Below are positions 47,103 to 60,899 of a stretch of 64,000 nucleotides of DNA, piece by piece. The stretch is from Phyllobacterium myrsinacearum (GTDB taxonomy: Bacteria > Pseudomonadota > Alphaproteobacteria > Rhizobiales > Rhizobiaceae). Both the position numbers and the translations under genes were made by a program. A model generated the notes under the pieces. The model ran no database searches, was not told the origin of the DNA, and saw nothing but the letters and a program-made list of their open reading frames with translations. Numbering within the stretch: the first letter of the stretch is position 1; each line of letters opens with the position of its first letter. The stretch is from NCBI RefSeq assembly GCF_002980555.1, contig NZ_PVBT01000009.1:124001-188000 (forward strand), given 5' to 3'.

Positions 47103-48698
47103 GTGCAAACCTATGACTACATTGTCGTTGGCGCAGGATCTTCGGGCTGTGTTCTGGCGAACCGGCTGGTGACGGCTGGCAAGAGCGTGCTGCTGCTCGA
47201 AGCCGGAGCACGCGACAACACGCCATTCATCCATATTCCCGCCACTTTCGTTCGCGTGCTCGGCACGAAGCGGACATGGATGTACCGCACTGAACCGGAG
47301 CCCGGCGCCAATGGCCGGGTGCTCACGGTCCCGCAAGGGCGCACGCTTGGCGGTGGCTCCTCCGTCAACGCAATGATCTATATTCGCGGGCAGGCGGAAG
47401 ACTATGATACGTGGCGCGATCTGGGCTGCGCGGGCTGGGGTTACAGCGAGGTTCTGCCGGTCTTCCGCCGCTCGGAAGACAATGAAACGTTTTCCGATGC
47501 ATTCCATGGCACAGGCGGCGCGTTGAAAGTATCCGAACCGCGCCATCGCCACCCCATCAGCTCGGCCTTCGTGCGCGCAGCACAGGAAGCGGGCCTGCCC
47601 TACACCGCCGATTTCAACGGCGCGACGCAGGAAGGCATCGGGTTCTATCAGACAACAACCTTTAACCAGAAGCGCGCCTCCACCGCTGCGACTTTTCTGA
47701 AGGCGGTCCTGAAATCACCTTTGCTGACCGTCCGGACGGAGAGTGAAGCACACGGCCTCATTCTTGAAAATGGCGCGGCTGCCGGCATTTGTTACCGCAC
47801 ACGCGACTGCACCATGCACACCGCGCGCGCCAGGGAGGAAGTTGTCCTGAGCGCTGGTGCACTGGCCACGCCCAAACTGCTGATGCTCTCGGGTATCGGC
47901 CCTGGCGCGGAGTTGCAGCAGCATGGCATAGCAGTGATGCGCAACCTTCCGGGCGTAGGCGAAAATTTCCAGGATCACATCACCGCTTCAGTATACGGCG
48001 TAACCGACAGTCCCATCTCGCTCAAGGGACAGGACAGGGGCTTTCGCGCCATCGCAAACGGCCTGCAATATATGGTCACCAGGTCCGGCCTGCTGACATC
48101 GAATGTCGTGGAAACCGGCGGCTTTGTCGATACGTCCGGCAAAGGCAGACCCGACATCCAGTTCCATGTGACGCCAGCGCTTGTCGGCGATGCGCTGCGC
48201 GGACAGATGGAAGGACACGGTGTGTCGATCAATCCCTGCATCCTGCGTCCGCTATCGCGTGGCAAGGTTTCGCTGCGCAGCCCTGATCCGCAGGACCCGA
48301 TTGTCTTTATCGGCAACAACCTGACGCATCAGGACGATGTCGACACGCTCGTGCGGGGCATCCGGCTGGCCCGCCGCATTCTGGCAGCCCCATCCATGCG
48401 TGCCCTGGGTTTCCGCGAATTTTTACCAGGGCCAGGGGCGGAAAGCGATACACAACTGGTGCAACACGCCCGCTCTATGGCCAAGACGGTCTATCACCCG
48501 GCTGGCACCTGCAAGATGGGAAATGATTCACTGGCGGTCGTGGACAACAGGTTGAGGGTCATTGGCGTGCCGCGCCTGCGCATTTCCGATGCCTCGGTCA
48601 TGCCGACCCTTGTCAGCGGCAACACCAATGCCCCCTGCGTCATGATCGCTGAACGTTGTGCCGATTTCCTCCTCGGACGGGACAACGGCCAGTCATGA
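47103..48698 (+). CDS. GMC-family FAD oxidoreductase (choline-dehydrogenase type)
   Basis: The 531-residue protein starts at GTG 47103 after GGGAGGAGG. The FAD-binding motif YIVVGAGSSGCVLANRL, GGGSSVNAMIYIRG, and the active-site His region VYHPAGTCKMG mark a glucose-methanol-choline oxidoreductase. It oxidises an alcohol to an aldehyde and passes electrons to the respiratory chain. It is placed before the amidohydrolase and after the aldehyde dehydrogenase, so a substrate with a hydroxyl group is likely. Confidence 0.94.
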   Translation: MQTYDYIVVGAGSSGCVLANRLVTAGKSVLLLEAGARDNTPFIHIPATFVRVLGTKRTWMYRTEPEPGANGRVLTVPQGRTLGGGSSVNAMIYIRGQAEDYDTWRDLGCAGWGYSEVLPVFRRSEDNETFSDAFHGTGGALKVSEPRHRHPISSAFVRAAQEAGLPYTADFNGATQEGIGFYQTTTFNQKRASTAATFLKAVLKSPLLTVRTESEAHGLILENGAAAGICYRTRDCTMHTARAREEVVLSAGALATPKLLMLSGIGPGAELQQHGIAVMRNLPGVGENFQDHITASVYGVTDSPISLKGQDRGFRAIANGLQYMVTRSGLLTSNVVETGGFVDTSGKGRPDIQFHVTPALVGDALRGQMEGHGVSINPCILRPLSRGKVSLRSPDPQDPIVFIGNNLTHQDDVDTLVRGIRLARRILAAPSMRALGFREFLPGPGAESDTQLVQHARSMAKTVYHPAGTCKMGNDSLAVVDNRLRVIGVPRLRISDASVMPTLVSGNTNAPCVMIAERCADFLLGRDNGQS

Positions 48699-48720
48699 TC
48701 CCACGAAGGAGAATGGAAGC

Positions 48721-50415
48721 ATGGCAGCCGGACAGATATTGCATAACGGAAGAATTCATACACTCGATACGGCCTCCAGCGTTGTTGATGCCATCGCCTT
48801 CGGCCGGGACGGCAAAATACTTGCGCTCGGCCGACTGCACGACATGCAGTCGTTGATCGATGAAACAACCGAAGTGTTTGACCTGCAAGGCTGTTTTGTG
48901 ATGCCGGGTCTCATTGATTTTCATCTCCATGCGCTGCCGGGCATGATCGTCAAATTGTACAGCACCCGGCTTAAGCCGACTGACAATTTTGCGGCCGTTC
49001 TTGAGCGTATCCGGCTTGCCGCTCTTGAACCGGGGGAACGCGAATGGATTGTCGGCAGTGCGTTCGGGCCATCGGCACTGGCGGACATGCAGCAACTGGG
49101 CGCCCAGGCGTTGCATATGCTCGATGCCGTCAGTAATGGACGACCGGTCGTCCTCGAACATGTCAGTGGGCACGGCATCTTTGCCAATTCAGCGGCCTTG
49201 GTCCGTGCTGGTATCACCGCGCATACGCCCAATCCGCCGGATGGCGAAATCGTCAAGGTGGCCGGCCAGGTGACTGGCTTGCTGCATGAAACTGCCGCAT
49301 GGCTAGTACAGGACAAAATTCCAGCCCTTACCCCGCAGCAGATGATCGATGTCGCCGGAAAGGCTGTTGCATTGTTCAACAGTGTGGGAATGACCGGCTT
49401 TTGCGATGCCAGCAGCACGATAGACATGCTGAACACATTTCGCGCCCTGGATGATCAGGGCCGCCTCACCTGCTGGGCGGGCTTTACCCTTGCGCTGAGC
49501 AGCACGTGCCCGGGCTACGATCCGGCGGCGGCCGAACACCTGCTGGCCGAACACCGGAACATTTGCGGGGAACATATGATCGCCGGCGCAGCCAAGATTT
49601 TTCTTGACGGTGTTCCCTCCCTGCGTACGGCAGCCATGATCGACCCTTACCCGTCCGATGATCCCGATGTCCTGCCGGATCATCGCGGTGCCATGGCTCT
49701 TTCACCCGAGGAGTTGGAAGAGGAAATTGCGCGCTTCGACAGGCTGGGGTTGAGTGTCAAGGTACATGCAATCGGAGACCGTGCTGTTCTCACGGTTATC
49801 GACGCGGTCGAAGCGGTTCGGCGAACAAATGGCCCCAATGGTCCACAGCATCACATCGCGCATGGCCAGTTCATTCGGCCGGACGATATCGCGCGTCTGT
49901 CGCAGTTGAATATCCTTGCCGATCTCAACCCACCCTTGTGGTTTCCCAGCAGCGCAAGTCTGACGCATAAAGGGATCGTCGGTGATCAGCGGTACGCCTC
50001 AACGTGGCCGGTGCGCAGCCTGCTCGACACCGGTACAGACGTTGCCGTCGGGTCGGACTGGTTGACCATCTTTGCGGATATCAATCCGTGGCTCGCACTT
50101 TCCGGCTTGCTCACACGCCGCGACCCCACCGGAAAATTTCCCGGTGTCCACGCGCCGGAGCAGGCTATCAGCCTTCACCAGGCTCTTCCGCTTTTCACCA
50201 GAAACCCTGCCCTGGCCATGCGGCTTGGCGAGAAAACCGGCCAATTGGCCGTTGGCCTTTCTGCCGATCTGATTGTGCTCGATCGCGATCTGACCACGAT
50301 ATCTCCCGAACATATTGCCGGCACAAAGGTCCTGGCTACATTCTTTCAGGGGCGACTTGTTCATCCTGCCGATAAGCATGTAAAAGGAATCTTCAGACTA
50401 ACAACCCATGTATAG
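48721..50415 (+). CDS. Amidohydrolase of the YtcJ type (metal-dependent hydrolase superfamily)
   Basis: From ATG 48721 (AAGGAG upstream) the protein has 564 residues. It has the composite beta-sandwich start (ILHNGRIHTLDTASSVVDAI), the HxH metal motif MPGLIDFHLHALPG, later HAIGDRAVLTVIDAVE, HHIAHGQFIRPDD and VAVGSDWLTIFADI with the metal Asp. YtcJ-like enzymes hydrolyse amides or N-formyl/cyclic ureido bonds. It ends the rightward chain, 22 bases behind the GMC gene. Confidence 0.92.
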   Translation: MAAGQILHNGRIHTLDTASSVVDAIAFGRDGKILALGRLHDMQSLIDETTEVFDLQGCFVMPGLIDFHLHALPGMIVKLYSTRLKPTDNFAAVLERIRLAALEPGEREWIVGSAFGPSALADMQQLGAQALHMLDAVSNGRPVVLEHVSGHGIFANSAALVRAGITAHTPNPPDGEIVKVAGQVTGLLHETAAWLVQDKIPALTPQQMIDVAGKAVALFNSVGMTGFCDASSTIDMLNTFRALDDQGRLTCWAGFTLALSSTCPGYDPAAAEHLLAEHRNICGEHMIAGAAKIFLDGVPSLRTAAMIDPYPSDDPDVLPDHRGAMALSPEELEEEIARFDRLGLSVKVHAIGDRAVLTVIDAVEAVRRTNGPNGPQHHIAHGQFIRPDDIARLSQLNILADLNPPLWFPSSASLTHKGIVGDQRYASTWPVRSLLDTGTDVAVGSDWLTIFADINPWLALSGLLTRRDPTGKFPGVHAPEQAISLHQALPLFTRNPALAMRLGEKTGQLAVGLSADLIVLDRDLTTISPEHIAGTKVLATFFQGRLVHPADKHVKGIFRLTTHV

Positions 50416-51134: not shown

Positions 51135-51602
51135 ATGAGCATTGAAATGCAGCACATGCGACAGACCAAACGCAAACCCAACATCCGTATATCGCAGACT
51201 GATCATTCAAGATTGACTGCGTTAGCGAGTAGCTCGATGACAGAAAATCCGGAAGTTTCCGAGGAATTGCTAGACGAACTTGATCGCGCCAAGGTTGTCG
51301 CCGACGGATCCATTGCTGCCAAAGTGGTGCAGATGGGCTCGACCGTCACGTACAAAGCTTCGACCAATGACACAAAAACCGTCAAGCTCGTCTTCCCGGG
51401 AGAAGCGGATATAACCCAAGGCAAGGTCTCTATTCTCACGCCGATCGGGACGGCGTTGATCGGCTTGTCCATCGGGCAATCCATTTCGTGGACTGCCCGC
51501 AACGGGCGTAGTCATGAACTGACGATCCACGACGTCATTCACCCACTCAGCGTGGACCAACAACCAATCTCGGAAAAATCCGTTAGGCCCTCCAACGAGT
51601 AG
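51135..51602 (+). CDS. Rnk-like nucleoside-diphosphate-kinase regulator / GreA-GreB family protein
   Basis: The 155-residue protein has a short N-terminal helical part and a GreA/GreB-type C-terminal domain at about 60-140 (VVQMGSTVTYKASTNDTKTV, then PGEADITQGKVSILTPIGTA, then LSIGQSISW). Such Rnk proteins bind RNA polymerase at the secondary channel without the long Gre coiled coil. In-frame ATGs at residues 5 and 8 are alternative starts. It stands alone between the two catabolic regions. Confidence 0.9.
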   Translation: MSIEMQHMRQTKRKPNIRISQTDHSRLTALASSSMTENPEVSEELLDELDRAKVVADGSIAAKVVQMGSTVTYKASTNDTKTVKLVFPGEADITQGKVSILTPIGTALIGLSIGQSISWTARNGRSHELTIHDVIHPLSVDQQPISEKSVRPSNE

Positions 51603-51754: not shown

Positions 51755-53305
51755 CTAATTCTGCAGACGCTCGCTCAATCGACAGAGGAAACAAAGCTCG
51801 CTATGCACTGGTGCCGTTAGTCCTGCAAAAATGATCGCCCCATCATAGGGCATCAAAATCTCGCTGCCATCCGCACGTTTCCCGATGAGTTCACCCTTGT
51901 TGACGGGTTCGCCAGCTGCAAATTGTTTTACCAGATGGTCCTCATCATGATCGGCGAGGATGGCATCGCATATTTCCAGCACACGCGGTGTTTGGGCTCG
52001 TGGCCGCGCGTCCGCAACCATACCCAGAGATGCCATGCCATTGACGAGACAGTCATAACCAACCTGTGGTCCCTTTGGGTCCAGATGCTGGCCACATTCA
52101 ACCGTAACCCCATAGCCGCCGGTAAAGCGCATATATTCGGTTGTGCCTATACCATGCAGTGATGACAGGCCTTCGATTACGCCTGCATCGCGTTTTTGCT
52201 TTAGTGCTTTTTCATGCGCAGGCAGCCAGCCATGCACAACGAGCGGAAGATCGAGTGCTTTCGCCAGTTTAGTCTCTGCCGCTTCATGGGCAAAAGGTTC
52301 GAGCGATCCGTTGTTATCCCGTGGGCCGATCAGTGCGAAAGCGTCACCTTCCGAGCTGAAAGAATGCAAATCCATCAACACATCATGAGCCCGTAGCAGC
52401 GGGCACATGATATTGGCCACGCGATCTTCATTGTCCTGCGGCATGGCACTTTCCGCAAGATTGCGATTAAAGTTGCGATCTCCGATGCGCGTATTCCTGC
52501 GGAAGGCAAGCCCGTTGACCACCGGCACAAAAGTAACCATGCCGCATTCCAGTTCTCTTTGTCCTGTGCGAAACTCATTGATCAGACGGCTGATCGCATA
52601 AGGGCCGGCTGGCTCGTTGCCATGGACAGAACCTGTAACAATCAAACGCGGCCCAGGTTTCATACCGTGAAACGTAACGCTCTCAATGGATTTTGGCGGC
52701 GCGCTAACAAAGGGTGCGAGCAGCGTCACCGGATCGTCAATTGAAGCGATGTCGACGACCATACCGGGGCACAGACGCCGCGCCAGTTCGATCAAATGCT
52801 CATGTGCCACGACCACGCAGCCGGATGTGCCGCTGTAATCCGGTCGTGCCGTGTGCATGAAAATGGCTGAACCGCCGCGAGCCTCAGGCAGCGCATCGTT
52901 CCAGCCAACAGGTATGATCAGATCAAACAGTCTCTCGCCACGGCGTGAAGCTTGTGTTTCGTCTGTTTCGAACACCAGCTGATTATAGAAGGGGCTGTCG
53001 GCATCTTCGATCCAGCGGTAATTTTCAGGCTTGGGCAAAAACGGAAAATCAAAGCCACGAGGCTCGTCACCGAAAACCGTCGGATCATAAAACCCATAAC
53101 GCAAGGGATGACGGCCACGCGGCGTTTTACCGTCGCCTTCCCGTTTCAACTGCGGATCCACCAGGCCGTTACGGCCGATGGCGCACTTGACGGTCCAGTC
53201 ACCTATGGTCAGCAGACCAATATGCGGGGTTTGTGGATCATACCCTGTACGCACGACAATTGTGGGTTGTTCGAGTGTTCCGACCATAAACGGGTTTTGA
53301 CTCAT
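51755..53305 (-). CDS. Fusion of an L,D-transpeptidase (YkuD) domain and an AstE/AspA-type zinc deacylase
   Basis: The 516-residue protein has two domains. Residues 15-200 are a YkuD-type L,D-transpeptidase: CAIGRNGLVDPQLKREGDGK, TPRGRHPLRY, then GGSAIFMHTARPD and SGTSGCVVV with catalytic His151 and Cys163. Residues 205-510 are a succinylglutamate-desuccinylase/aspartoacylase domain: VTGSVHGNEPAGP with His228 and Glu231, DRNFNRNL, and MDLHSFSSEG with His314, then a beta-rich tail (KGELIGKRADGSEILMPYDG). No signal peptide is visible, so it is probably cytoplasmic, odd for a wall transpeptidase. It starts 4 bases after the last ABC ATPase gene and ends the peptide-import operon. A role in trimming imported wall-derived or D-amino-acid peptides is inferred. 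Confidence 0.88.
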   Translation of the reverse strand: MSQNPFMVGTLEQPTIVVRTGYDPQTPHIGLLTIGDWTVKCAIGRNGLVDPQLKREGDGKTPRGRHPLRYGFYDPTVFGDEPRGFDFPFLPKPENYRWIEDADSPFYNQLVFETDETQASRRGERLFDLIIPVGWNDALPEARGGSAIFMHTARPDYSGTSGCVVVAHEHLIELARRLCPGMVVDIASIDDPVTLLAPFVSAPPKSIESVTFHGMKPGPRLIVTGSVHGNEPAGPYAISRLINEFRTGQRELECGMVTFVPVVNGLAFRRNTRIGDRNFNRNLAESAMPQDNEDRVANIMCPLLRAHDVLMDLHSFSSEGDAFALIGPRDNNGSLEPFAHEAAETKLAKALDLPLVVHGWLPAHEKALKQKRDAGVIEGLSSLHGIGTTEYMRFTGGYGVTVECGQHLDPKGPQVGYDCLVNGMASLGMVADARPRAQTPRVLEICDAILADHDEDHLVKQFAAGEPVNKGELIGKRADGSEILMPYDGAIIFAGLTAPVHSELCFLCRLSERLQN

Positions 53306-53309
53306 GGGA

Positions 53310-54332
53310 TTAGCCTTGTTCTAACAAATGGCAACGGGCGCGGTGGAAATGCGCCCCGGACGAATTGATAAATGACGGAATATCGCCCTCGCGGCATTTG
53401 TCGAATGCGGAAGGGCAACGCGGATTGAACGCACAGCCAGGCGGGGGATTAAGCGGTGATGGTGCTTCACCCTGCATCCGGCGCTGGCGCGCCATGGGGG
53501 CCAGTGGATCGGGGATGGCGGCGATCAAGGCCTGCGTATAGGGATGCAGCGGGCTCGTGAAAATATCACTCCATACGCCCTCTTCAACGATGCGGCCCAG
53601 ATACATCACTGCGATGCGGTCACTCATATGTTCAACGACGCCGAGATCGTGCGAAATCATCAAAAGCGCGATACCGAGTTCGTCTTTCAATTCCAGCAAC
53701 AAATTGATGATCTGTGCGCGTATGGATACATCAAGAGCAGAAACAGGTTCGTCGCAGACAAGCAGTTTCGGTTGAACAATCAAGGCACGCGCGATGCAAA
53801 TACGCTGCCTTTGGCCGCCAGAAAACTCGTGTGGCTTGCGATCCGCCGCTTCAGGTTTCATACCAACCTTAGCCAACATGTCCGTCACGCGGACCTCGAC
53901 CTCGGCACTATCTTTCATACCATGGAGACGCAATGGCGCGGCAAGAGCCTCGCGCACGGAACGGCGCGGATTGAGCGACGCAAACGGATCCTGAAATACC
54001 ATCTGCACATTGCGGGCCTGAGCGAGTGGATCGTTTTTAACAGCTGTCGGCACATCCTGCCCTGCCACATGCACCGATCCGGAAGTGATGGGGACAAGTC
54101 CCATAATGGCGCCGGCAAGCGTGGATTTTCCACAGCCGCTTTCGCCGACCAGACCGAGGCATTCGCCGGCTTTGAGAGAGAGATCAATTCCGTTGACAGC
54201 TTTCAGTGTCTTTTTTCGAAAGCCTTCGCGAACAGAATAATGAATGCACAGATCTCGAATGGCGAGTACTTCGGCAGTGCTGCCGTTCTTGCCGCCATCT
54301 GTTGGTGGCAACGCGATGCTCTGCTCAGTCAT
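53310..54332 (-). CDS. Oligo/dipeptide ABC ATPase (DppF/OppF-like)
   Basis: From ATG 54332, overlapping the previous gene by 8 bases, the protein has 340 residues: Walker [14 protein letters not shown]-loop FQDPFASLNPR, signature FSGGQRQRICIARAL, Walker B LLVCDEPVSALD and the C-terminal oligopeptide-ABC tail with CAFNPRCPSAFDKC cysteines, the Fe-S-type motif of Dpp/Opp ATPases. It pairs with the DppD-like ATPase. Confidence 0.94.
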   Translation of the reverse strand: MTEQSIALPPTDGGKNGSTAEVLAIRDLCIHYSVREGFRKKTLKAVNGIDLSLKAGECLGLVGESGCGKSTLAGAIMGLVPITSGSVHVAGQDVPTAVKNDPLAQARNVQMVFQDPFASLNPRRSVREALAAPLRLHGMKDSAEVEVRVTDMLAKVGMKPEAADRKPHEFSGGQRQRICIARALIVQPKLLVCDEPVSALDVSIRAQIINLLLELKDELGIALLMISHDLGVVEHMSDRIAVMYLGRIVEEGVWSDIFTSPLHPYTQALIAAIPDPLAPMARQRRMQGEAPSPLNPPPGCAFNPRCPSAFDKCREGDIPSFINSSGAHFHRARCHLLEQG

Positions 54333-55305
54333 GATGGAAACACCTAATCGAACCCAGCTCATCAAGGGACGCTACGGGCGGCATAGCCTCCCTGCACGCG
54401 TCGGTGACACGCGGACAACGCGAAGCAAAACCACACCCGATATCGCGCTCCATCAAGCCTGGAACGACACCTTTGATTTCGGTTAATCGGGAGCGGCCTT
54501 CCCGCAAACGACGGCCGAGGAGCGGCAAAGAGGCTACAAGCCCATGCGTATAAGGGTGGCGCGGATCGGTAAAAATCTCACTGGCAGGACGCTGTTCTAC
54601 AATGTGGCCAGCATACATAACCGCCACCCGATGACACATGCGCGCAACAAGCCCCAGATCATGCGAAATCATCAGAACTGCTGTGCCCCGGGCTGTGCAC
54701 AAATCAAGAATGAGTTCAACAATTTCTGCCTGAATGGTCACATCCAGTGCGGTCGTCGGCTCATCGGCAATCAGCAACGCCGGGTCGCAAGCCAGCGCGA
54801 TCGCAATCATCACACGCTGGCGCATGCCACCGGAAAGCTGATGCGGATAATCCTTGATGCGCCGTTCCGGGCTTGGAACCTGTACCTGCTCCAGTGCCTC
54901 TATGGCTTTGAGCCGGGCCTGACGAGTGTTCATGCCTTTATGCAGCACGAACATTTCGCCGATCTGGTCACCGATTGTCATCAGAGGATTGAGCGAGGTC
55001 ATCGGCTCCTGAAAGATCATGGCGACGCGGTCGCCGCGCAGGCGGCGCAAATCTTTGTTGGGCAAGCGGTTTATATCCTGCCCCTCCAGGAGTACGCATC
55101 CCTGCGTGACATTCATCGGGGCGCGCAGCAAACCCGCAATCGTCAGCGCACACAGACTCTTGCCGCAGCCGGACTCTCCAACAAGCCCGAACACTTCACC
55201 GGCTTGGATAGAAAAATCAATCTGGTTGACCGCCGGAAAGTTTCGTCCTTGAGCGCGCAGCGCAATCGAAAGATTTTGGACCTGCAGAATAGATTTGTCA
55301 GCCAT
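54325..55305 (-). CDS. Oligo/dipeptide ABC ATPase (DppD/OppD-like)
   Basis: The 326-residue protein has Walker [16 protein letters not shown]-loop [14 protein letters not shown], signature [15 protein letters not shown], Walker [13 protein letters not shown], and the Cys-containing tail [16 protein letters not shown]. Its start overlaps the DppC stop by one base. It acts with the DppF-like protein to drive peptide import. Confidence 0.94.
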
Positions 55306-56120
55306 CAGCGTTTTGACCTCCCGTGCGGATCAAGCAGGTCACGCAAGCCGTCGCCCAGCATATTGAAGCCAAGCACGGTGATGAAGAGCGCCATTCCCGG
55401 AAAAATCGCAACCCATGGCGCAACCATGAGCTGCTCGCGTGCCCGTGCCAGCATACCGCCCCAACTCGGTGCAGGCGGAACAACACCCAACCCCAGAAAG
55501 GACAGTGATGCTTCTGCCATAATGGCCGATCCGATACCCATTGTGGCCACCACAATGAGCGGCCCGCCAATATTCGGCAGGATTTCACGCAGCATGATGT
55601 AGAATTTACCGAAGCCAAGCGTGCGGGCCGCCTGCACATAGTTTTGTGATTTTTGAGTGAGAACCTGCGCCCGCGAAATACGGCAGCTATAGGCCCAGTC
55701 CGTCAAACCAAGGGCTATCAGCAGACTGAGCAGTCCGGGTCCAAGAACCGCCATGAGAGCCAAGGCAAACACAATGGTCGGAATGGATAGCATCAGATTT
55801 GTCAGGCCTTGCACAAACTCGTCCCACCAGCCGCCGAGATAACCGGCGGAAAGGCCAAGCAGAACGCCTATGCACGTGTTCATCGTCTGAACAGCAAGTC
55901 CGATCATAAGCGAGATCCGCGCCCCATAGGCAATGCGTGAGAAAATGTCCCGGCCCTGCTCATCGGTACCAAACCAGAACTGCGCACCTGGTGCTTCTTC
56001 TGCATAAAGAAGATTGGAGTTGGAAACCGGATCGTAATGGGCAATCCACGGCGCAAACAGCGCCACCAGAATGATGGTCACGAAGATTGTGAGCCCTATG
56101 ACAAGATTGGAGCGGAACAT
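55305..56120 (-). CDS. Dipeptide-type ABC permease (DppC-like)
   Basis: The 271-residue membrane protein starts MFRSNLVIGLTIFVTIILVA and shows the DppC N-terminal helix, FGTDEQGRDIFSRIAYGARI and the coupling segment YVQAARTLGFGKFYIMLREI, then EASLSFLGLGVVPPAPSWGG. These are diagnostic for the Dpp/Opp second permease. It lies 62 bases behind the DppB-like gene. Confidence 0.94.
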   Translation of the reverse strand: MFRSNLVIGLTIFVTIILVALFAPWIAHYDPVSNSNLLYAEEAPGAQFWFGTDEQGRDIFSRIAYGARISLMIGLAVQTMNTCIGVLLGLSAGYLGGWWDEFVQGLTNLMLSIPTIVFALALMAVLGPGLLSLLIALGLTDWAYSCRISRAQVLTQKSQNYVQAARTLGFGKFYIMLREILPNIGGPLIVVATMGIGSAIMAEASLSFLGLGVVPPAPSWGGMLARAREQLMVAPWVAIFPGMALFITVLGFNMLGDGLRDLLDPHGRSKR

Positions 56121-56182: not shown

Positions 56183-57127
56183 TCAGCGGTATCGAATGCG
56201 CGGGTCGATCGCGAGATAAGCGATATCGACAAGCGTGTTGATGATGAGAAAGAAGAGCACGATCACAAGAATGCAGCCTTGAACCGTTGGTATGTCGCGC
56301 ATGGAGACCGATTGCGTCAAAAGCGAACCGATACCCGGCCACGCAAACAAGTTCTCAATGACGACCGAGCCACCCAGCATGGAGCCGAATTGCAGGCCGA
56401 TTGTCGTCAGCACCAATACAAAGGCGTTGCGTGCCATATGTTTGGTAACAATGCGGAATTCCGAGTTTCCTTTTGATCTGGCCGTGCGGACAAAATCAGC
56501 ATTCATGGTTTCCAGCACAGCTGCGCGGGTCGTGCGCGCCAAAAGCGCCATAGGGGCGATACCAAGCGTCAGGGCAGGCAGCACCAGATTCCTGATATTG
56601 CCGTTGCCATAGCCAAAAGTGGGCAACCAGCCCAGTTTGAGCGATATGAAATACATGGCCAGCAAACCAAACCAGAAACCGGGCAGCGAGAGACCGGAAA
56701 CGGCTGTGATCATGGCCGTTGTATCCAGCCATGTGCCCTGTCGTACGGCTGCCAGAAAGCCAAGCGGCAAACCGATGACGATGGCAAAGGCAATCGCCGC
56801 AACGGCGAGTTTGAATGAGGCGACTATGCGGGTGGATAGCATCGTGGTGACAGGGCGTTGTGTGGAAAAGGACGTGCCGAGATCACCTGTTGCAAGCCCG
56901 GAAATATATTTGCCGAACCGCTGTGGCAACGGATCTTTCAAACCCAGTTCCTTTTCAAGGCGTTCAGCAACCGCCGGATCAATGTCGCGTTTGTCGCTGG
57001 AGAGCGAAGACACAAATGTGCCTGGCATGACGCCGAATAGAAAAAAGATCAGCGTTATTGCAGCAAAAACCGTGACCAGAGATTGTAGCAGTCGCCTGCC
57101 AATCACCACCAACATAGGAATATCCAT
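56183..57127 (-). CDS. Dipeptide-type ABC permease (DppB-like)
   Basis: The 314-residue protein has the DppB layout: MLVVIGRRLLQSLVTVFAAI at the N-terminus (an internal ATG at 57115 is an alternative start), PLPQRFGKYISGLATGDLGT, and the late coupling loop FVRTARSKGNSEFRIVTKHM. It forms the membrane pore with the DppC-like protein. Confidence 0.94.
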   Translation of the reverse strand: MDIPMLVVIGRRLLQSLVTVFAAITLIFFLFGVMPGTFVSSLSSDKRDIDPAVAERLEKELGLKDPLPQRFGKYISGLATGDLGTSFSTQRPVTTMLSTRIVASFKLAVAAIAFAIVIGLPLGFLAAVRQGTWLDTTAMITAVSGLSLPGFWFGLLAMYFISLKLGWLPTFGYGNGNIRNLVLPALTLGIAPMALLARTTRAAVLETMNADFVRTARSKGNSEFRIVTKHMARNAFVLVLTTIGLQFGSMLGGSVVIENLFAWPGIGSLLTQSVSMRDIPTVQGCILVIVLFFLIINTLVDIAYLAIDPRIRYR

Positions 57128-57279: not shown

Positions 57280-58881
57280 TTAACGGCCAGGCGCGTTGGC
57301 GTCGAGCCAAAGCGAATCCACTTCGATGATGGCGGCTTCGGTCACGTTGCTGTCAACGCCGTGAATCCACGGCTGGGTTGCCACTACTGCCTTATTGTAG
57401 TTGTTGAACCAGACCGGCGCCTTTTCAAAAATATAGGCATCCGCTTTCTTCAAAAGCTCAATGCGTTTGGCCGGATCCGATTCAGCCGAGGCCGCGTCCA
57501 GAATTGCGTCATAAGCGGGGTCTTTGAAGGCACTGCGGTTACAGCCCGGACGGCTGATACGGCTGTCGAAGCAGCGCAAAGCGGTGAGCGGATCAGGTCC
57601 CGTGCCCGCAGAACGAAACCATGCCATGGCCGATCCCTGATTCATTTCATCAACAAGCGTGTTGGAATCCACGACCTTGGCTTTGGCGGTGATGCCTACC
57701 TCTTTGAGAAATGGCATCATGGCTTCCAGAACACCGAGGCTCGATGTACCTTCCGTCACGGATATTGTCACTTCAAAGCCATTGGGATAACCGGCTGCCG
57801 CCAGTAGTTCCTTGGCTTTCGCCGGATCATATGGATAGGGCGCGCGGTCTTTGTCAAACGCCGGGGATGTTGTTGGTAGCCAACCCGTCGCCTTATACGC
57901 TTTGTCTTTGAGAAGTTTGTGGATGATGATGTCACGGTCAACAGCATAGTTGATTGCCTGCCGCACACGCACATCGTCAAATGGCTTCTTTTCAGTGTTG
58001 AGGCCCATATGGCGGGTGAACACCTCCGAAATTTCAATCAGGCCCTTGGAAAGTTCTGGGTCCGCCTTGTAAAGAACATAAGCGTTTTCTGACAGAACGG
58101 TGGCGTCCAGCTCGCCAGCGCGAAACGCCATATCAAGCGCGCTGTTATCACCGGATATGGTGAAATCCACTGCATCAGCATAAGGCTTGCCCTGTTTGTA
58201 ATATTTGTCGAATTTTTTGCCCGAGATTTTCGAACCTTCGACGTGATCCCCAAAGGCAAACGGTCCAAGACCAACAGGGTGGCTGAGGAAATTGCCGCTT
58301 TCTACTTCTTCTTTTGGCAGAATAGCTGTGATGGCTTCGAAGAACTGCGTGCCCGGATCGACTAGGTCTTTGAATGTGAGCGAGAAGGTGCGGTCATCGA
58401 TCTTTTTAATGCCGCCGATTTCTTTGACTTCACCCTTGGAATATTCCTGCGCACCGACGAGTGTACCGACCTGCACTGCGCCCGGATAGCCCTTCGTCGG
58501 GTCCATGATACGCGTATAGGACCAGACCACATCATCTGTGGTCAGCTTACGACCATTGTGGAAATAGATGTTGTCAAACAGTTTGTAAGTGAACGTTTTA
58601 CCGTCATCACTGGTTTTAACCAATTCAGCCAGATCAAGAGCAGGCGCGTTTTTGGCTGAATCCCATGTATAAAGGGAGCGGTGAAACGCTTTGGAGACCA
58701 CCATGTCCTGTGAGTTGTAAGTTGCATGCGGGTCAAGACTTTTGAGGGCCGCGCCATAGGGCGCTGCCAAATGCAGCGTCCCGCCGGGCTTCGGCTCATC
58801 GGCCCAAGCTGAGCTTGCAGGAACAGCCGCGGACAATGCGGCGGCAATCAATGCAGCTTTTATGATCGAGCGATAGTTCAT
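57280..58881 (-). CDS. ABC peptide-binding protein (DppA/OppA family 5)
   Basis: From ATG 58881 (GGGGA upstream) the protein has 533 residues with signal peptide MNYRSIIKAALIAAALSAAV, then PASSAWA. Family-5 solute-binding features: GGTLHLAAPYGAALKSLDPH, DVVWSYTRIMDPTKGYPG, and VRQAINYAVDRDII. It binds peptides or similar ligands in the periplasm. Family members also bind nickel, heme or murein tripeptide, so the ligand is open. It lies 34 bases behind the serine hydrolase gene. Confidence 0.93.
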   Translation of the reverse strand: MNYRSIIKAALIAAALSAAVPASSAWADEPKPGGTLHLAAPYGAALKSLDPHATYNSQDMVVSKAFHRSLYTWDSAKNAPALDLAELVKTSDDGKTFTYKLFDNIYFHNGRKLTTDDVVWSYTRIMDPTKGYPGAVQVGTLVGAQEYSKGEVKEIGGIKKIDDRTFSLTFKDLVDPGTQFFEAITAILPKEEVESGNFLSHPVGLGPFAFGDHVEGSKISGKKFDKYYKQGKPYADAVDFTISGDNSALDMAFRAGELDATVLSENAYVLYKADPELSKGLIEISEVFTRHMGLNTEKKPFDDVRVRQAINYAVDRDIIIHKLLKDKAYKATGWLPTTSPAFDKDRAPYPYDPAKAKELLAAAGYPNGFEVTISVTEGTSSLGVLEAMMPFLKEVGITAKAKVVDSNTLVDEMNQGSAMAWFRSAGTGPDPLTALRCFDSRISRPGCNRSAFKDPAYDAILDAASAESDPAKRIELLKKADAYIFEKAPVWFNNYNKAVVATQPWIHGVDSNVTEAAIIEVDSLWLDANAPGR

Positions 58882-58915: not shown

Positions 58916-59818
58916 TTATTTTTGGAAGGCATATCGGTAAAAGTGCTGCGCGAAATTGGGCAGAAAACTTTTGTCATTCGCTGACCATTCCCCATCGCAC
59001 ATCACACAGAGAACAAAACTTTTCCCGTCAGGCGTTTCCCCGTAGACCAGATCGTGCCTGGTCCAGGACGTATGACCCGCTTTCGACCACGTCATGACAT
59101 CCCGCGGCAAACCCTCAACCAAAAAACCACGGACCTGATCACCCTCAGGATCGCCATCATTGGAATGGCGCTGAAACTCACGGTTCATCAGCCCCATCAT
59201 CCAATCGGAGCGCGCATGCGCACCGCGCGCAATGTCGTGCATCAAAGCTGCTGCGGATAAGGCGGTGAGACGATTTCCATTTTTGCCATTGCGGATCTGC
59301 TGCGCGCGGCCATACGGGCTGTCCTCATATGTGCCATGCAATACGTTGATACCCGCAAATTCCGGACGGTTCTGCGATTCATACCATTGCTGAACGCGGT
59401 GGCGCGCCGCGCACCATTCTTCAAGCGCTTTTCCCTGCAATGGCGCGCCATCATCAGCACCGGTCAAACGTCCCACGAGATAAACCGTCGCCTCGTTGGA
59501 GGAAATGGCCATCATCTGTTCGGCGGCACGATCATCTTCCGCGTGTTCAGCCAAGCGGCCTTCTTCACGGAAAGCCGCCAACGCATTGAGAAAAAACAGC
59601 TTCACGACACTTGCCGGATAAAGCGGTTTGATTGCCCGATGTCCAAACCATGACAAATTCAGGAATGCGCCGGGATCAACCAGGCGCAAGGGAGCATCGA
59701 AGAGACAGCCAGCCAGACTGACACGGCTTTCATCACGAGCGCCATTTGTCGATTGCAATGCGTCTGACAGCGCGCGTGACGCCGGATGCGTCTTCGGCAT
59801 TTGGGCAGTGGCGTTCAT
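58916..59818 (-). CDS. Class-A-beta-lactamase-like serine hydrolase
   Basis: The 300-residue protein has the penicillin-recognising fold: Ser70-x-x-Lys73 in LYPASVVKLFFLNAL, Ser-Asn in ISSNEATVYLVGRL (S106/S107-N108), and WSKAGHTSWT in place of the KTG motif. No signal peptide is visible, which is unusual for a beta-lactamase and suggests a cytoplasmic peptidase or amidase role. It is the first gene of the peptide-import operon, divergent from a LysR gene. Cleavage of D-amino-acid-containing peptides is one plausible role. Confidence 0.85.
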   Translation of the reverse strand: MNATAQMPKTHPASRALSDALQSTNGARDESRVSLAGCLFDAPLRLVDPGAFLNLSWFGHRAIKPLYPASVVKLFFLNALAAFREEGRLAEHAEDDRAAEQMMAISSNEATVYLVGRLTGADDGAPLQGKALEEWCAARHRVQQWYESQNRPEFAGINVLHGTYEDSPYGRAQQIRNGKNGNRLTALSAAALMHDIARGAHARSDWMMGLMNREFQRHSNDGDPEGDQVRGFLVEGLPRDVMTWSKAGHTSWTRHDLVYGETPDGKSFVLCVMCDGEWSANDKSFLPNFAQHFYRYAFQK

Positions 59819-59891: not shown

Positions 59892-60899
59892 ATGCAGCTA
59901 CGATATGATCTGGCAAAAATTGCAGCAATTTCAGAGGGTAAAAAGGTGAGATCTGGCAAAGATCATATCAGTTTGCGCCAAGTAGAGATTTTTCGCGCGA
60001 CCATGAAGTTTGGCACCGTCACAGCTGCCGCAGCGGCCCTTGGTTCTTCGCAGCCAACCATTACGCGCGAGTTATCACGGCTGGAGGAACATATCGGCTT
60101 TCGCCTGTTTGAACGGCGTCTGCAAAGACTGGTGCCAACGGCCAGAGCGCTCAAGCTTTTTGAGGAAGTGCAAGCCTCATTCATCGGTCTGGACCGTATC
60201 AATGATTTTATCGATCGTCTGCGCGATGCTTCGGAAGAAGTGCTGACGGTCGCTTCTCTGCCGGCCTTTGCACAGGCGATTTTGCCTGAAGCGGTCGCGC
60301 GATTAAATGCTACCCATCCTGATTTGACACTGCAAATCAGTACGGTCGACCCCCGCAATCAATCAAGTATCTCCGGCTTCAATTTTGATGTCGGCCTGAT
60401 CGAGGGTGTTTATACCGAAAGAGATGCGGAATCGCGAATATTATGGGTGTTCCAGCTCGTCGCCATCATGCATCCAGATCATCCTCTGGCGCAACGAAAC
60501 TATGTTGAGCCGCACGACTTTGAAGGCGTCAATTTCATCAGTCTCGGTTCTCAAGACCCGTACCGGCTGAGTGTGGAACGTGTATTCGACACGGCAGGCA
60601 CGCAAAGACGGCTGTTCCTGTCATCGCAGTCGGCCAGCAGCGTGTGCGAATTGGTGCTAAAAGGGTTGGGTATTTCAATAATCAATCCGCTTACCGCGTT
60701 AAGCTATGAAAAACACGGCCTTGTTCTAAAGCCTTTTTTGCCTGCACAGGATTTTGTCCTGTCCGTTTTACGTCCAATCAATCGCCCTGTCGTCGCCAGT
60801 TCTGATGCGCTCGTGATGCATCTGTCCCAAATATGTGCGCAAAGACATCACAATCTGGTCCAAAAACGCTTGGCTGTGGACGATAGAGGACGGCATTGA
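59892..60899 (+). CDS. LysR-family regulator of the peptide operon
   Basis: The protein has 335 residues from ATG 59892; a GTG at 59946 after GAGGG would give 317 and a more typical LysR N-terminus. The helix-turn-helix reads LRQVEIFRATMKFGTVTAAA, then GSSQPTITRELSRLEEHIG. The effector domain follows (VLTVASLPAFAQAILPEAV; FDVGLIEGVYTERD). It is divergent from the serine hydrolase with a 73-base gap and probably controls the whole dpp-like operon. Confidence 0.92.
   Translation: MQLRYDLAKIAAISEGKKVRSGKDHISLRQVEIFRATMKFGTVTAAAAALGSSQPTITRELSRLEEHIGFRLFERRLQRLVPTARALKLFEEVQASFIGLDRINDFIDRLRDASEEVLTVASLPAFAQAILPEAVARLNATHPDLTLQISTVDPRNQSSISGFNFDVGLIEGVYTERDAESRILWVFQLVAIMHPDHPLAQRNYVEPHDFEGVNFISLGSQDPYRLSVERVFDTAGTQRRLFLSSQSASSVCELVLKGLGISIINPLTALSYEKHGLVLKPFLPAQDFVLSVLRPINRPVVASSDALVMHLSQICAQRHHNLVQKRLAVDDRGRH

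What the first reader, a model, noticed from the sequence alone, without database searches (positions are those of the whole stretch)
51755..53305. L,D-transpeptidase domain fused to an AstE/AspA zinc deacylase
Catalytic His151/Cys163 of the YkuD part and zinc ligands His228, Glu231 and His314 of the second part are all present, so both domains could be active. Neither a signal peptide nor a wall-binding domain is seen. I know of no described enzyme with this layout; it may cut and deacylate small wall-derived or D-amino-acid peptides in the cytoplasm.
Basis: partly seen in the sequence, partly recalled or inferred. Interest (0 to 1): 0.75.

Follow-up and report, generated by a model that had tools for sequence, protein, structure and literature searches.

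The report
Two-step cytoplasmic wall-peptide trimming enzyme
A soil bacterium carries one protein made of two different peptide-cutting enzymes, encoded next to a peptide importer, that probably takes imported cell-wall peptides apart from one end in two successive cuts inside the cell; if so, it shows one way such bacteria could use old wall material without the usual enzymes.

Summary
In detail: 51755-53305 (-) is one 516-aa ORF with a YkuD domain and an AstE/AspA zinc-hydrolase domain, catalytic residues present. It is a real conserved gene: 20 loci were examined (19 fused, one split into two back-to-back ORFs), and both halves are under strong purifying selection. No signal peptide is apparent. 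It is the last gene of an operon: divergent LysR regulator, leaderless beta-lactamase-fold serine hydrolase, peptide-binding protein, two permeases, two ATPases, then the fusion (complete in 12 of 20 loci). The YkuD half belongs to a leaderless subfamily whose profile finds only LD-carboxypeptidase structures (Pgp2, Bd1075), very weakly. The zinc half is a separate branch of AstE/AspA, weakly related also to a structure I recall as the wall-peptide carboxypeptidase Csd4. The genome gave no match to LdcA or M14/MpaA models and none above cut-off to Mpl. Best explanation (0.45): a bifunctional cytoplasmic carboxypeptidase for imported murein peptides; YkuD removes D-Ala from the tetrapeptide, the zinc domain then removes diaminopimelate, like Pgp2 plus Pgp1 (or LdcA plus MpaA) in one chain. 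Main rival: other D-amino-acid peptides. Activity is untested; both structure predictions failed. New variant of a known kind.

The parts
51755..53305 (-). YkuD + AstE/AspA fusion gene, 516 aa
   Evidence: ORF; both Pfam domains above cut-off; ATG 4 bases after the stop of the upstream ATPase ORF
52748..53197 (-). YkuD domain (aa 37-186), His151 and Cys163
   Evidence: PF03734, 45.8 bits; residues kept in 16 of 16 fused or split proteins
52343..52657 (-). AstE_AspA catalytic domain as matched by Pfam (aa 217-321), His228, Glu231, His314; the conserved domain runs on to aa 516 and includes Glu403
   Evidence: PF24827, 48.9 bits; residues kept in 30 of 30; alignment along most of its length with AstE 2g9d
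53310..54365 (-). Dpp/Opp-type ABC transporter ATPase (OppF/DppF-like); start codon uncertain
   Evidence: ABC_tran and oligo_HPY
54325..55305 (-). Dpp/Opp-type ABC transporter ATPase (OppD/DppD-like)
   Evidence: ABC_tran and oligo_HPY
55305..56120 (-). ABC transporter permease (OppC/DppC-like)
   Evidence: BPD_transp_1 and OppC_N
56183..57127 (-). ABC transporter permease (OppB/DppB-like)
   Evidence: BPD_transp_1
57280..58881 (-). Peptide-type solute-binding protein with a hydrophobic leader (start codon chosen by eye; ORF begins at 58995)
   Evidence: SBP_bac_5; nearest solved chain 8upi, 1.1e-56; leader
58916..59818 (-). Leaderless beta-lactamase-fold serine hydrolase, first gene of the operon
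   Evidence: Beta-lactamase2, 33.8 bits (cut-off 22); SxxK and SSN motifs in 12 of 12 loci, KAG found in 10 of 12
59892..60899 (+). LysR-type regulator, divergent from the operon
   Evidence: HTH_1 and LysR_substrate

Best explanation
A bifunctional cytoplasmic carboxypeptidase that ends an import-and-degrade operon for murein (cell-wall) peptides. Inferred course: the binding protein and Dpp/Opp-type ABC transporter bring in L-Ala-gamma-D-Glu-mDAP-D-Ala(-D-Ala) peptides; the beta-lactamase-fold hydrolase may remove the last D-Ala of pentapeptides; the YkuD half (Cys163 nucleophile, His151) cuts the L,D bond mDAP-D-Ala, tetrapeptide to tripeptide, with water rather than a second peptide as acceptor; the zinc half (His228/Glu231/His314, base Glu403, carboxylate anchors Arg273/Asn280/Arg281) then cuts gamma-D-Glu-mDAP, freeing mDAP and L-Ala-D-Glu. 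Shown: the gene, domains, intact residues, constraint on both halves, operon, no match for LdcA and M14 models in the genome. Inferred: location, substrates, order of cuts, any channelling.
For: Complete operon with a peptide-type importer in 12 of 20 loci. Fusion and serine hydrolase lack a hydrophobic leader. YkuD subfamily: Cys 12 positions after His in 32 of 32, Phe two before His in 31 of 32, no Arg after GC[VI], unlike 5 other YkuD proteins of the genome. The subfamily profile lists three PDB chains at E<=10, Pgp2 (0.023, 0.024) and 7o21 (0.046); PMC10653827 (passages) treats 6XJ6 (Pgp2) and 7O21 (Bd1075) as LD-carboxypeptidases. In Csd6 the Trp two before the catalytic His is essential and holds the D-Ala side chain (PMC4599014, passage). 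Zinc-domain profile matches 4wcm/4wck/4q6m at 4e-5 to 2.4e-3, recalled as Csd4, which cuts gamma-D-Glu-mDAP (function: PMC4599014). Known precedent of the two cuts in series: Pgp2 provides the substrate for Pgp1 (PMC3961634, title and abstract). M55 D-aminopeptidase near the fusion in L046 and L079. Own genome: no S66 match, no M14 match, Mpl model not above cut-off. Split form L048 keeps the two halves as adjacent ORFs.
Against: No activity data. Both structure models failed (pLDDT 28.9 and 30.6). The structural matches of the YkuD half are very weak: no Pgp2 stretch is significant alone and the best Bd1075 stretch has i-E 1.1, and the single-sequence search found only unrelated chains (0.0069, 0.42). 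One of the 5 comparison YkuD proteins (L006) has an aromatic residue (Tyr) two before His, so that feature does not separate cleanly. The stand-alone leaderless YkuD relative is near-universal in the family (277 of 297 genomes match), although A. tumefaciens is reported to lack cytoplasmic LD-carboxypeptidase activity (PMC9790009); whether that species carries the relative was not checked. Conversely, if it is such an enzyme, the genome does not lack one. The zinc half scores better with DoeB, AstE and AspA structures than with 4wcm, and its stand-alone relatives occur in other settings (L099, a biosynthesis-like cluster; L083-L088). In L063-L065 the zinc domain sits with the same kind of transporter and no adjacent YkuD gene. 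6 of 20 loci have no such transporter nearby. LdcV-type enzymes were not searched for.
Confidence: 0.45

Rival explanations
1. Same architecture and place, but the imported substrate is another class of D-amino-acid-containing or N-acylated peptide (antibiotic-like, nonribosomal, opine-like or D-Ala dipeptides) used as nutrient. The YkuD half cuts an L-D bond, the zinc half frees an amino acid from its acyl or peptidyl partner.
For: Neighbours point to D-peptides in general: M55 in L046 and L079, S58, class IV aminotransferase and amine oxidase in L079, an S12 beta-lactamase-fold enzyme in L046, an M81/MlrC-like protein and an Amidohydro_3 protein beside the stand-alone zinc domain in L064. 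The fusion is accessory: 8 of 297 family genomes.
Against: Pgp2, Bd1075 and Csd4-type relatives, though weak, all act on wall peptides. No neighbour names another specific substrate.
Confidence: 0.3
2. The zinc half is an N-acyl-amino-acid deacylase as in AstE, AspA or DoeB, and the YkuD half is unrelated to its substrate or only structural or regulatory.
For: Best sequence and structure matches of the zinc half are DoeB, AstE and AspA; it occurs alone in 15 examined loci.
Against: No equivalog model comes near its cut-off (27.8 of 402.7, 23.3 of 180, 18.9 of 170 bits). The YkuD catalytic pair is kept in 16 of 16 and the YkuD half is the slower-evolving one.
Confidence: 0.12
3. The YkuD half is a true L,D-transpeptidase (wall cross-linking, or exchange of D-amino acids onto peptides).
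For: Pfam YkuD hit with Cys and His present.
Against: No leader; His-Cys spacing 12 instead of 16-19; Thr, Ala or Ser after His and no Arg after the Cys pair; the motif H(S/G/D)X14-19C given for this domain in PMC4599014 is not met; no transpeptidase structure in the profile hits.
Confidence: 0.08
4. A sequencing or assembly error joined two genes.
For: In L048 a stop codon separates the halves.
Against: 18 other in-frame fused homologues from 17 assemblies, three of them annotated as one CDS on complete plasmids (L095, L096, L097). The L048 stop lies in the linker, is followed at once by ATG, and that sequence lies inside the fused clade.
Confidence: 0.01

Closest known systems
Pgp2 + Pgp1 (Campylobacter jejuni) / Csd6 + Csd4 (Helicobacter pylori)
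   Same: Works like: a YkuD-fold LD-carboxypeptidase followed by a zinc DL-carboxypeptidase (PMC3961634 title and abstract; PMC4599014 passages). Profile hits to Pgp2 and to chains recalled as Csd4.
   Different: Those act on wall peptides in the periplasm as separate proteins (Pgp2 periplasmic: abstract start); here one leaderless chain with an importer; similarity is weak.
ElsL, cytoplasmic YkuD LD-carboxypeptidase of Acinetobacter baumannii
   Same: Leaderless YkuD enzyme with a catalytic Cys acting on murein tetrapeptides in the cytoplasm (PMC8649774, abstract and passages).
   Different: Stand-alone; its ortholog set was limited to 105-200 aa, so fusions were left out. Its sequence was not held, so homology was not tested.
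LdcA + MpaA of Escherichia coli
   Same: Would do the same two cytoplasmic steps (LdcA: PMC9790009 passages; MpaA recalled).
   Different: Other families (S66, M14); neither model matches this genome.
AstE / aspartoacylase / DoeB family
   Same: Second half passes Pfam AstE_AspA_cat; zinc site and Arg/Asn-Arg/Glu set kept.
   Different: Far below all equivalog cut-offs; fused to YkuD.
YejBEF-YepA muropeptide recycling in Agrobacterium tumefaciens
   Same: ABC-importer-based uptake of wall fragments in the same bacterial group; degradation of the peptide proposed (PMC9790009, discussion).
   Different: Different gene set in the description read; no enzyme named for the peptide breakdown.

Membership tests
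YkuD superfamily (PF03734) | Profile score above the curated cut-off | tested here: met
   45.8 against 23.4 bits
YkuD superfamily (PF03734) | Catalytic His and Cys | tested here: met
   16 of 16 fused or split proteins
L,D-transpeptidase proper | H(S/G/D)X14-19C motif (PMC4599014) | tested here: not met
   Thr, Ala or Ser follows His and Cys lies 12 positions after it in 16 of 16
L,D-transpeptidase proper | Export to the periplasm | tested here: not met
   No hydrophobic leader by hydropathy; no dedicated predictor run
Csd6/Pgp2/Bd1075-type LD-carboxypeptidase | Aromatic residue two before the catalytic His (Trp158 in Csd6) | tested here: inconclusive
   Phe in 31 of 32 relatives, but one of 5 other YkuD proteins of the genome has Tyr there
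Csd6/Pgp2/Bd1075-type LD-carboxypeptidase | Sequence relationship | tested here: inconclusive
   Only these structures hit by the profile, at E 0.023-0.046; single sequence gave no such hit
ElsL-class LD-carboxypeptidase | Leaderless protein with YkuD Cys | tested here: met
ElsL-class LD-carboxypeptidase | Stand-alone domain of 105-200 aa, as in the published ortholog set | tested here: not met
   516 aa with a second domain; criterion from PMC8649774
ElsL-class LD-carboxypeptidase | Homology to ElsL itself | not tested
AstE/AspA family (PF24827) | Profile score and zinc ligands HxxE...H | tested here: met
   48.9 against 25 bits; 30 of 30
DoeB / aspartoacylase / succinylglutamate desuccinylase models | NCBIfam score above cut-off | tested here: not met
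   27.8 of 402.7, 23.3 of 180, 18.9 of 170 bits
MpaA / Peptidase M14 (PF00246) | Pfam M14 match | tested here: not met
   Not among the families found at E<=0.001
Two-step murein peptide carboxypeptidase (functional claim) | Tetrapeptide to tripeptide to dipeptide conversion | not testable with these tools
   Needs purified enzyme

The most novel reading that the evidence does not exclude
One cytoplasmic polypeptide performs the two consecutive carboxypeptidase steps of murein stem-peptide breakdown (LdcA and MpaA equivalents from unrelated folds), possibly handing the tripeptide from the Cys site to the zinc site, as the last gene of a regulated scavenging operon with its own importer: a catabolic route for wall peptides in Rhizobiales relatives without LdcA, MpaA and Mpl.
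Probability: 0.4. Interest if true: 0.75.

Novelty: new variant of a known kind. Interest (0 to 1): 0.6.

Why it matters
A. tumefaciens imports muropeptides but is reported to lack LD-carboxypeptidase and Mpl orthologues; the fate of the peptide is open, with degradation proposed (PMC9790009, discussion section read). This operon supplies a concrete candidate for such degradation in part of the group, and a fused enzyme in which two-step trimming and possible channelling can be tested directly. Records name it only a succinylglutamate desuccinylase (or desuccinylase/aspartoacylase family protein), which hides the YkuD half.

Tried and rejected
Structure prediction: full length with five homologues gave pLDDT 28.9, the YkuD half alone 30.6; neither was used and no fold search was made. 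Viral-contig searches for more diverse relatives of either domain found none. A tree of YkuD domains was spoiled by comparison rows cut badly in my script (3 of 8, L003, L005 and L008, lacked a readable motif) and is not relied on. The motif comparison uses the 5 readable rows out of 13 other YkuD matches in the genome besides the fusion and its stand-alone relative; four of the five show a signal- or lipoprotein-type N-terminus by eye, the start of L001 is unclear. Literature searches for the fusion: 11 papers listed; 13 listed; 0; the listed papers were judged by title and start of abstract, none was opened for this. A search for a paper on the closest solved binding protein (8upi) found nothing. 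The single-sequence PDB search of the serine hydrolase found no relative. Assembly error, export and transpeptidation were considered and rejected as argued under rivals. A quorum-sensing link (acyl-homoserine-lactone synthase near L097 and L099) was seen in 2 of 35 loci carrying the zinc domain; the other loci were not searched for such genes, and the idea was set aside.

Full report
What is there. The ORF at 51755-53305 on the minus strand (516 aa) carries YkuD (aa 37-186) and AstE_AspA_cat (aa 217-321), both above their curated Pfam cut-offs. An alignment of 30 sequences (16 fused or split, 14 with the zinc domain alone) keeps His228, Glu231, His314, Arg273, Asn280, Arg281 and Glu403 in 30 of 30, and His151 and Cys163 in 16 of 16. 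Codon comparison with Phyllobacterium calauticae gives dS/dN of 0.236/0.013 for the N half and 0.328/0.027 for the C half: both halves are maintained.

Is it real and how widespread. The genome-contig scan gave four named relatives: P. calauticae (96%), Neorhizobium xiangyangii (88%), a Brucellaceae MAG (84%) and Brucella tritici (81%). In 297 genomes of the same family, own genome included, the eight best matches span both domains; 277 of 297 have some match at E<=1e-10, and the further rows that were listed cover only, or almost only, the YkuD half (the list was cut by the tool). With the zinc half as query, 9 of 397 genomes of the order, 8 of 385 of the class and 7 of 398 of the phylum match at E<=1e-25, own genome included each time (some genomes recur between samples). 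Among these, three order-level genomes (G603, G441, G616) and one of another order (G1365) carry the fusion; the others look like the zinc domain alone, by neighbourhood or, for G1027, by reading-frame length only. In plasmid records 17 matched; I looked at six: four fused genes (Rhizobium daejeonense, Rhizobium sp. ACO-34A, two in Ensifer canadensis), one YkuD half alone (R. jaguaris) and one zinc half alone (Sulfuriferula nivalis). In all 20 loci with both halves were examined: 19 fused, the window included, and one split.

The split case. In the tree of the zinc domain (35 rows) this sequence lies inside a clade of 18 fused or split rows (100/99), so it is a later split; two other fusions (L049, L097; L097 is a long branch) group with five stand-alone zinc domains (91/86), which means either two fusions or one fusion and a loss.

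The operon. On the minus strand: serine hydrolase (58916-59818), peptide-binding protein (57280-58881), permeases (56183-57127, 55305-56120), ATPases (54325-55305, 53310-54365), fusion (51755-53305), with a LysR-type regulator divergent at 59892-60899. The same order is complete in 12 of 20 loci (window, L009, L010, L011, L012, L043, L044, L047, L079, L095, L096, L098). L045 is cut by its contig end but has both ATPases and both permeases. L046 has a different peptide transporter, an S12 beta-lactamase-fold protein, a BioF/Kbl-like protein and an M55 D-aminopeptidase upstream. L048, L049, L060, L061, L062 and L097 have no such transporter in the stretch read. In L096 the hydrolase and binding protein are labelled hypothetical; the first shows the hydrolase motifs, the second is placed by position and length. 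In L079 the operon is followed by a flavin amine oxidase, M55, a class IV aminotransferase and an S58 peptidase. Stand-alone zinc domains sit with binding-protein homologues of 47-52% identity in 3 of 15 loci (L063-L065), without a YkuD neighbour there. The serine hydrolase keeps SxxK and SSN in 12 of 12 loci and a KAG triad in 10 of 12 by pattern, without a hydrophobic leader.

What the YkuD half is. Of the other YkuD matches in the genome only a leaderless 177-aa protein (contig C3) matches it at E<=1e-10. In 16 fused or split and 16 stand-alone relatives, Cys lies 12 positions after His; the residue two before His is Phe in 31 of 32 (Leu in L079); GC is followed by [VI][VA]. In 5 other YkuD proteins of the genome the distance is 16-19 and the ending GC[IV]R; the residue two before His is Arg in four and Tyr in one. 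A profile of the subfamily lists three PDB chains at E<=10: Pgp2 (6xj6 0.023, 6xj7 0.024) and 7o21 (0.046), with no Pgp2 stretch significant on its own and i-E 1.1 for the best 7o21 stretch. PMC10653827 (passages and one section) names 6XJ6 as Pgp2 and 7O21 as Bd1075 and treats both, with Csd6, as LD-carboxypeptidases. Bd1075 reads GSGIWLH...GCVVV where the window reads GSAIFMH...GCVVV. In Csd6 the Trp two before His is essential and holds the D-Ala side chain (PMC4599014, passage). The single-sequence search did not find these structures; its hits (0.0069 and 0.42) are unrelated proteins. So the resemblance is a pointer, not proof.

What the zinc half is. Its profile matches the uncharacterised Mlr6093 (8.5e-18), DoeB (1.7e-11), AstE (1.9e-11) and aspartoacylases (7.3e-7 to 2.1e-5), aligning along most of its length with AstE 2g9d; further down come 4wcm, 4wck and 4q6m (4e-5 to 2.4e-3), labelled conserved hypothetical secreted protein, which I recall as H. 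pylori Csd4, the zinc enzyme that cuts gamma-D-Glu-mDAP (function stated in PMC4599014). No equivalog model reaches its cut-off. Arg273, Asn280-Arg281 and Glu403 fit a hydrolase that holds the carboxylate of the released amino acid and activates water (family knowledge, recalled).

Setting in the genome. No S66 (LdcA) match and no M14 match at E<=0.001 in an assembly rated 99.6% complete; three Mpl-model matches, all below cut-off (best 185 of 389 bits), presumably other Mur ligases. LdcV-type enzymes were not searched for, and the stand-alone YkuD relative could itself be an LD-carboxypeptidase. One M55 enzyme exists elsewhere, in another peptide-transporter cluster. A. tumefaciens is reported to import muropeptides through YejBEF-YepA, to lack cytoplasmic LD-carboxypeptidase activity and Mpl, and perhaps to degrade the peptides (PMC9790009, passages and discussion).

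Mechanism and confidence. The most economical reading is a two-step cytoplasmic carboxypeptidase for imported murein peptides, equivalent to Pgp2 then Pgp1, or LdcA then MpaA. I put 0.45 on this with the stated substrates and about 0.75 on the wider claim of a cytoplasmic hydrolase of imported peptides. Against it stand the lack of any assay, the failed structure models, very weak structural matches of the YkuD half, a near-universal stand-alone relative in a family whose studied species shows no such activity, and zinc-domain relatives in other settings.

Known or new. No paper on this fusion was found in the open library (listings). The ElsL study limited its ortholog set to 105-200 aa (PMC8649774, passage). 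I rate it a new variant of a known kind: known folds and probably a known pair of reactions, in a new single-chain, importer-coupled, cytoplasmic form.

Noticed in passing
L050:5644-6177 (G000 contig C3) and relatives L021-L042: A leaderless stand-alone YkuD protein with the same short His-Cys spacing as the fusion; matches of this kind occur in most of 297 family genomes, also in small genomes of about 1.5-2.4 Mb (genus g91).
   Followed up: partly
L090:1365-10348 (G000 contig C2): A second peptide-transporter cluster of the same genome with an MlrC-like protein, an M55 D-aminopeptidase and a creatininase-family protein.
   Followed up: partly
L048:12088-13653: The two halves as separate ORFs with the stop of the first followed directly by the ATG of the second, inside the fused clade.
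   Followed up: partly
L094:9890-10597: Rhizobium jaguaris plasmid with the YkuD half alone (48% identity); no zinc-domain match in the 20 kb around it.
   Followed up: partly
L099:7998-8978: Sulfuriferula nivalis plasmid: the zinc domain alone at the end of a run of biosynthesis-like genes (cysteine synthase family, two ATP-grasp, argininosuccinate lyase, PhzF), next to an acyl-homoserine-lactone synthase; L097 also has such a synthase some 6 kb away.
   Followed up: no
L096:15841-20405: Beside the operon in Rhizobium sp. ACO-34A, a second peptide transporter with a C45 acyltransferase/hydrolase annotated as acting on 6-aminopenicillanic acid.
   Followed up: no
window 48658-50415 (+): 585-aa ORF 28-30% identical to proteins encoded beside the transporter and stand-alone zinc domain in L063-L065; the L064 one is Amidohydro_3 by Pfam. 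The window protein itself was not scanned.
   Followed up: no
window 51135-51602 (+): Rnk/GreA-type gene (nucleoside diphosphate kinase regulator model, 156 bits, cut-off 109), convergent with the fusion gene.
   Followed up: no
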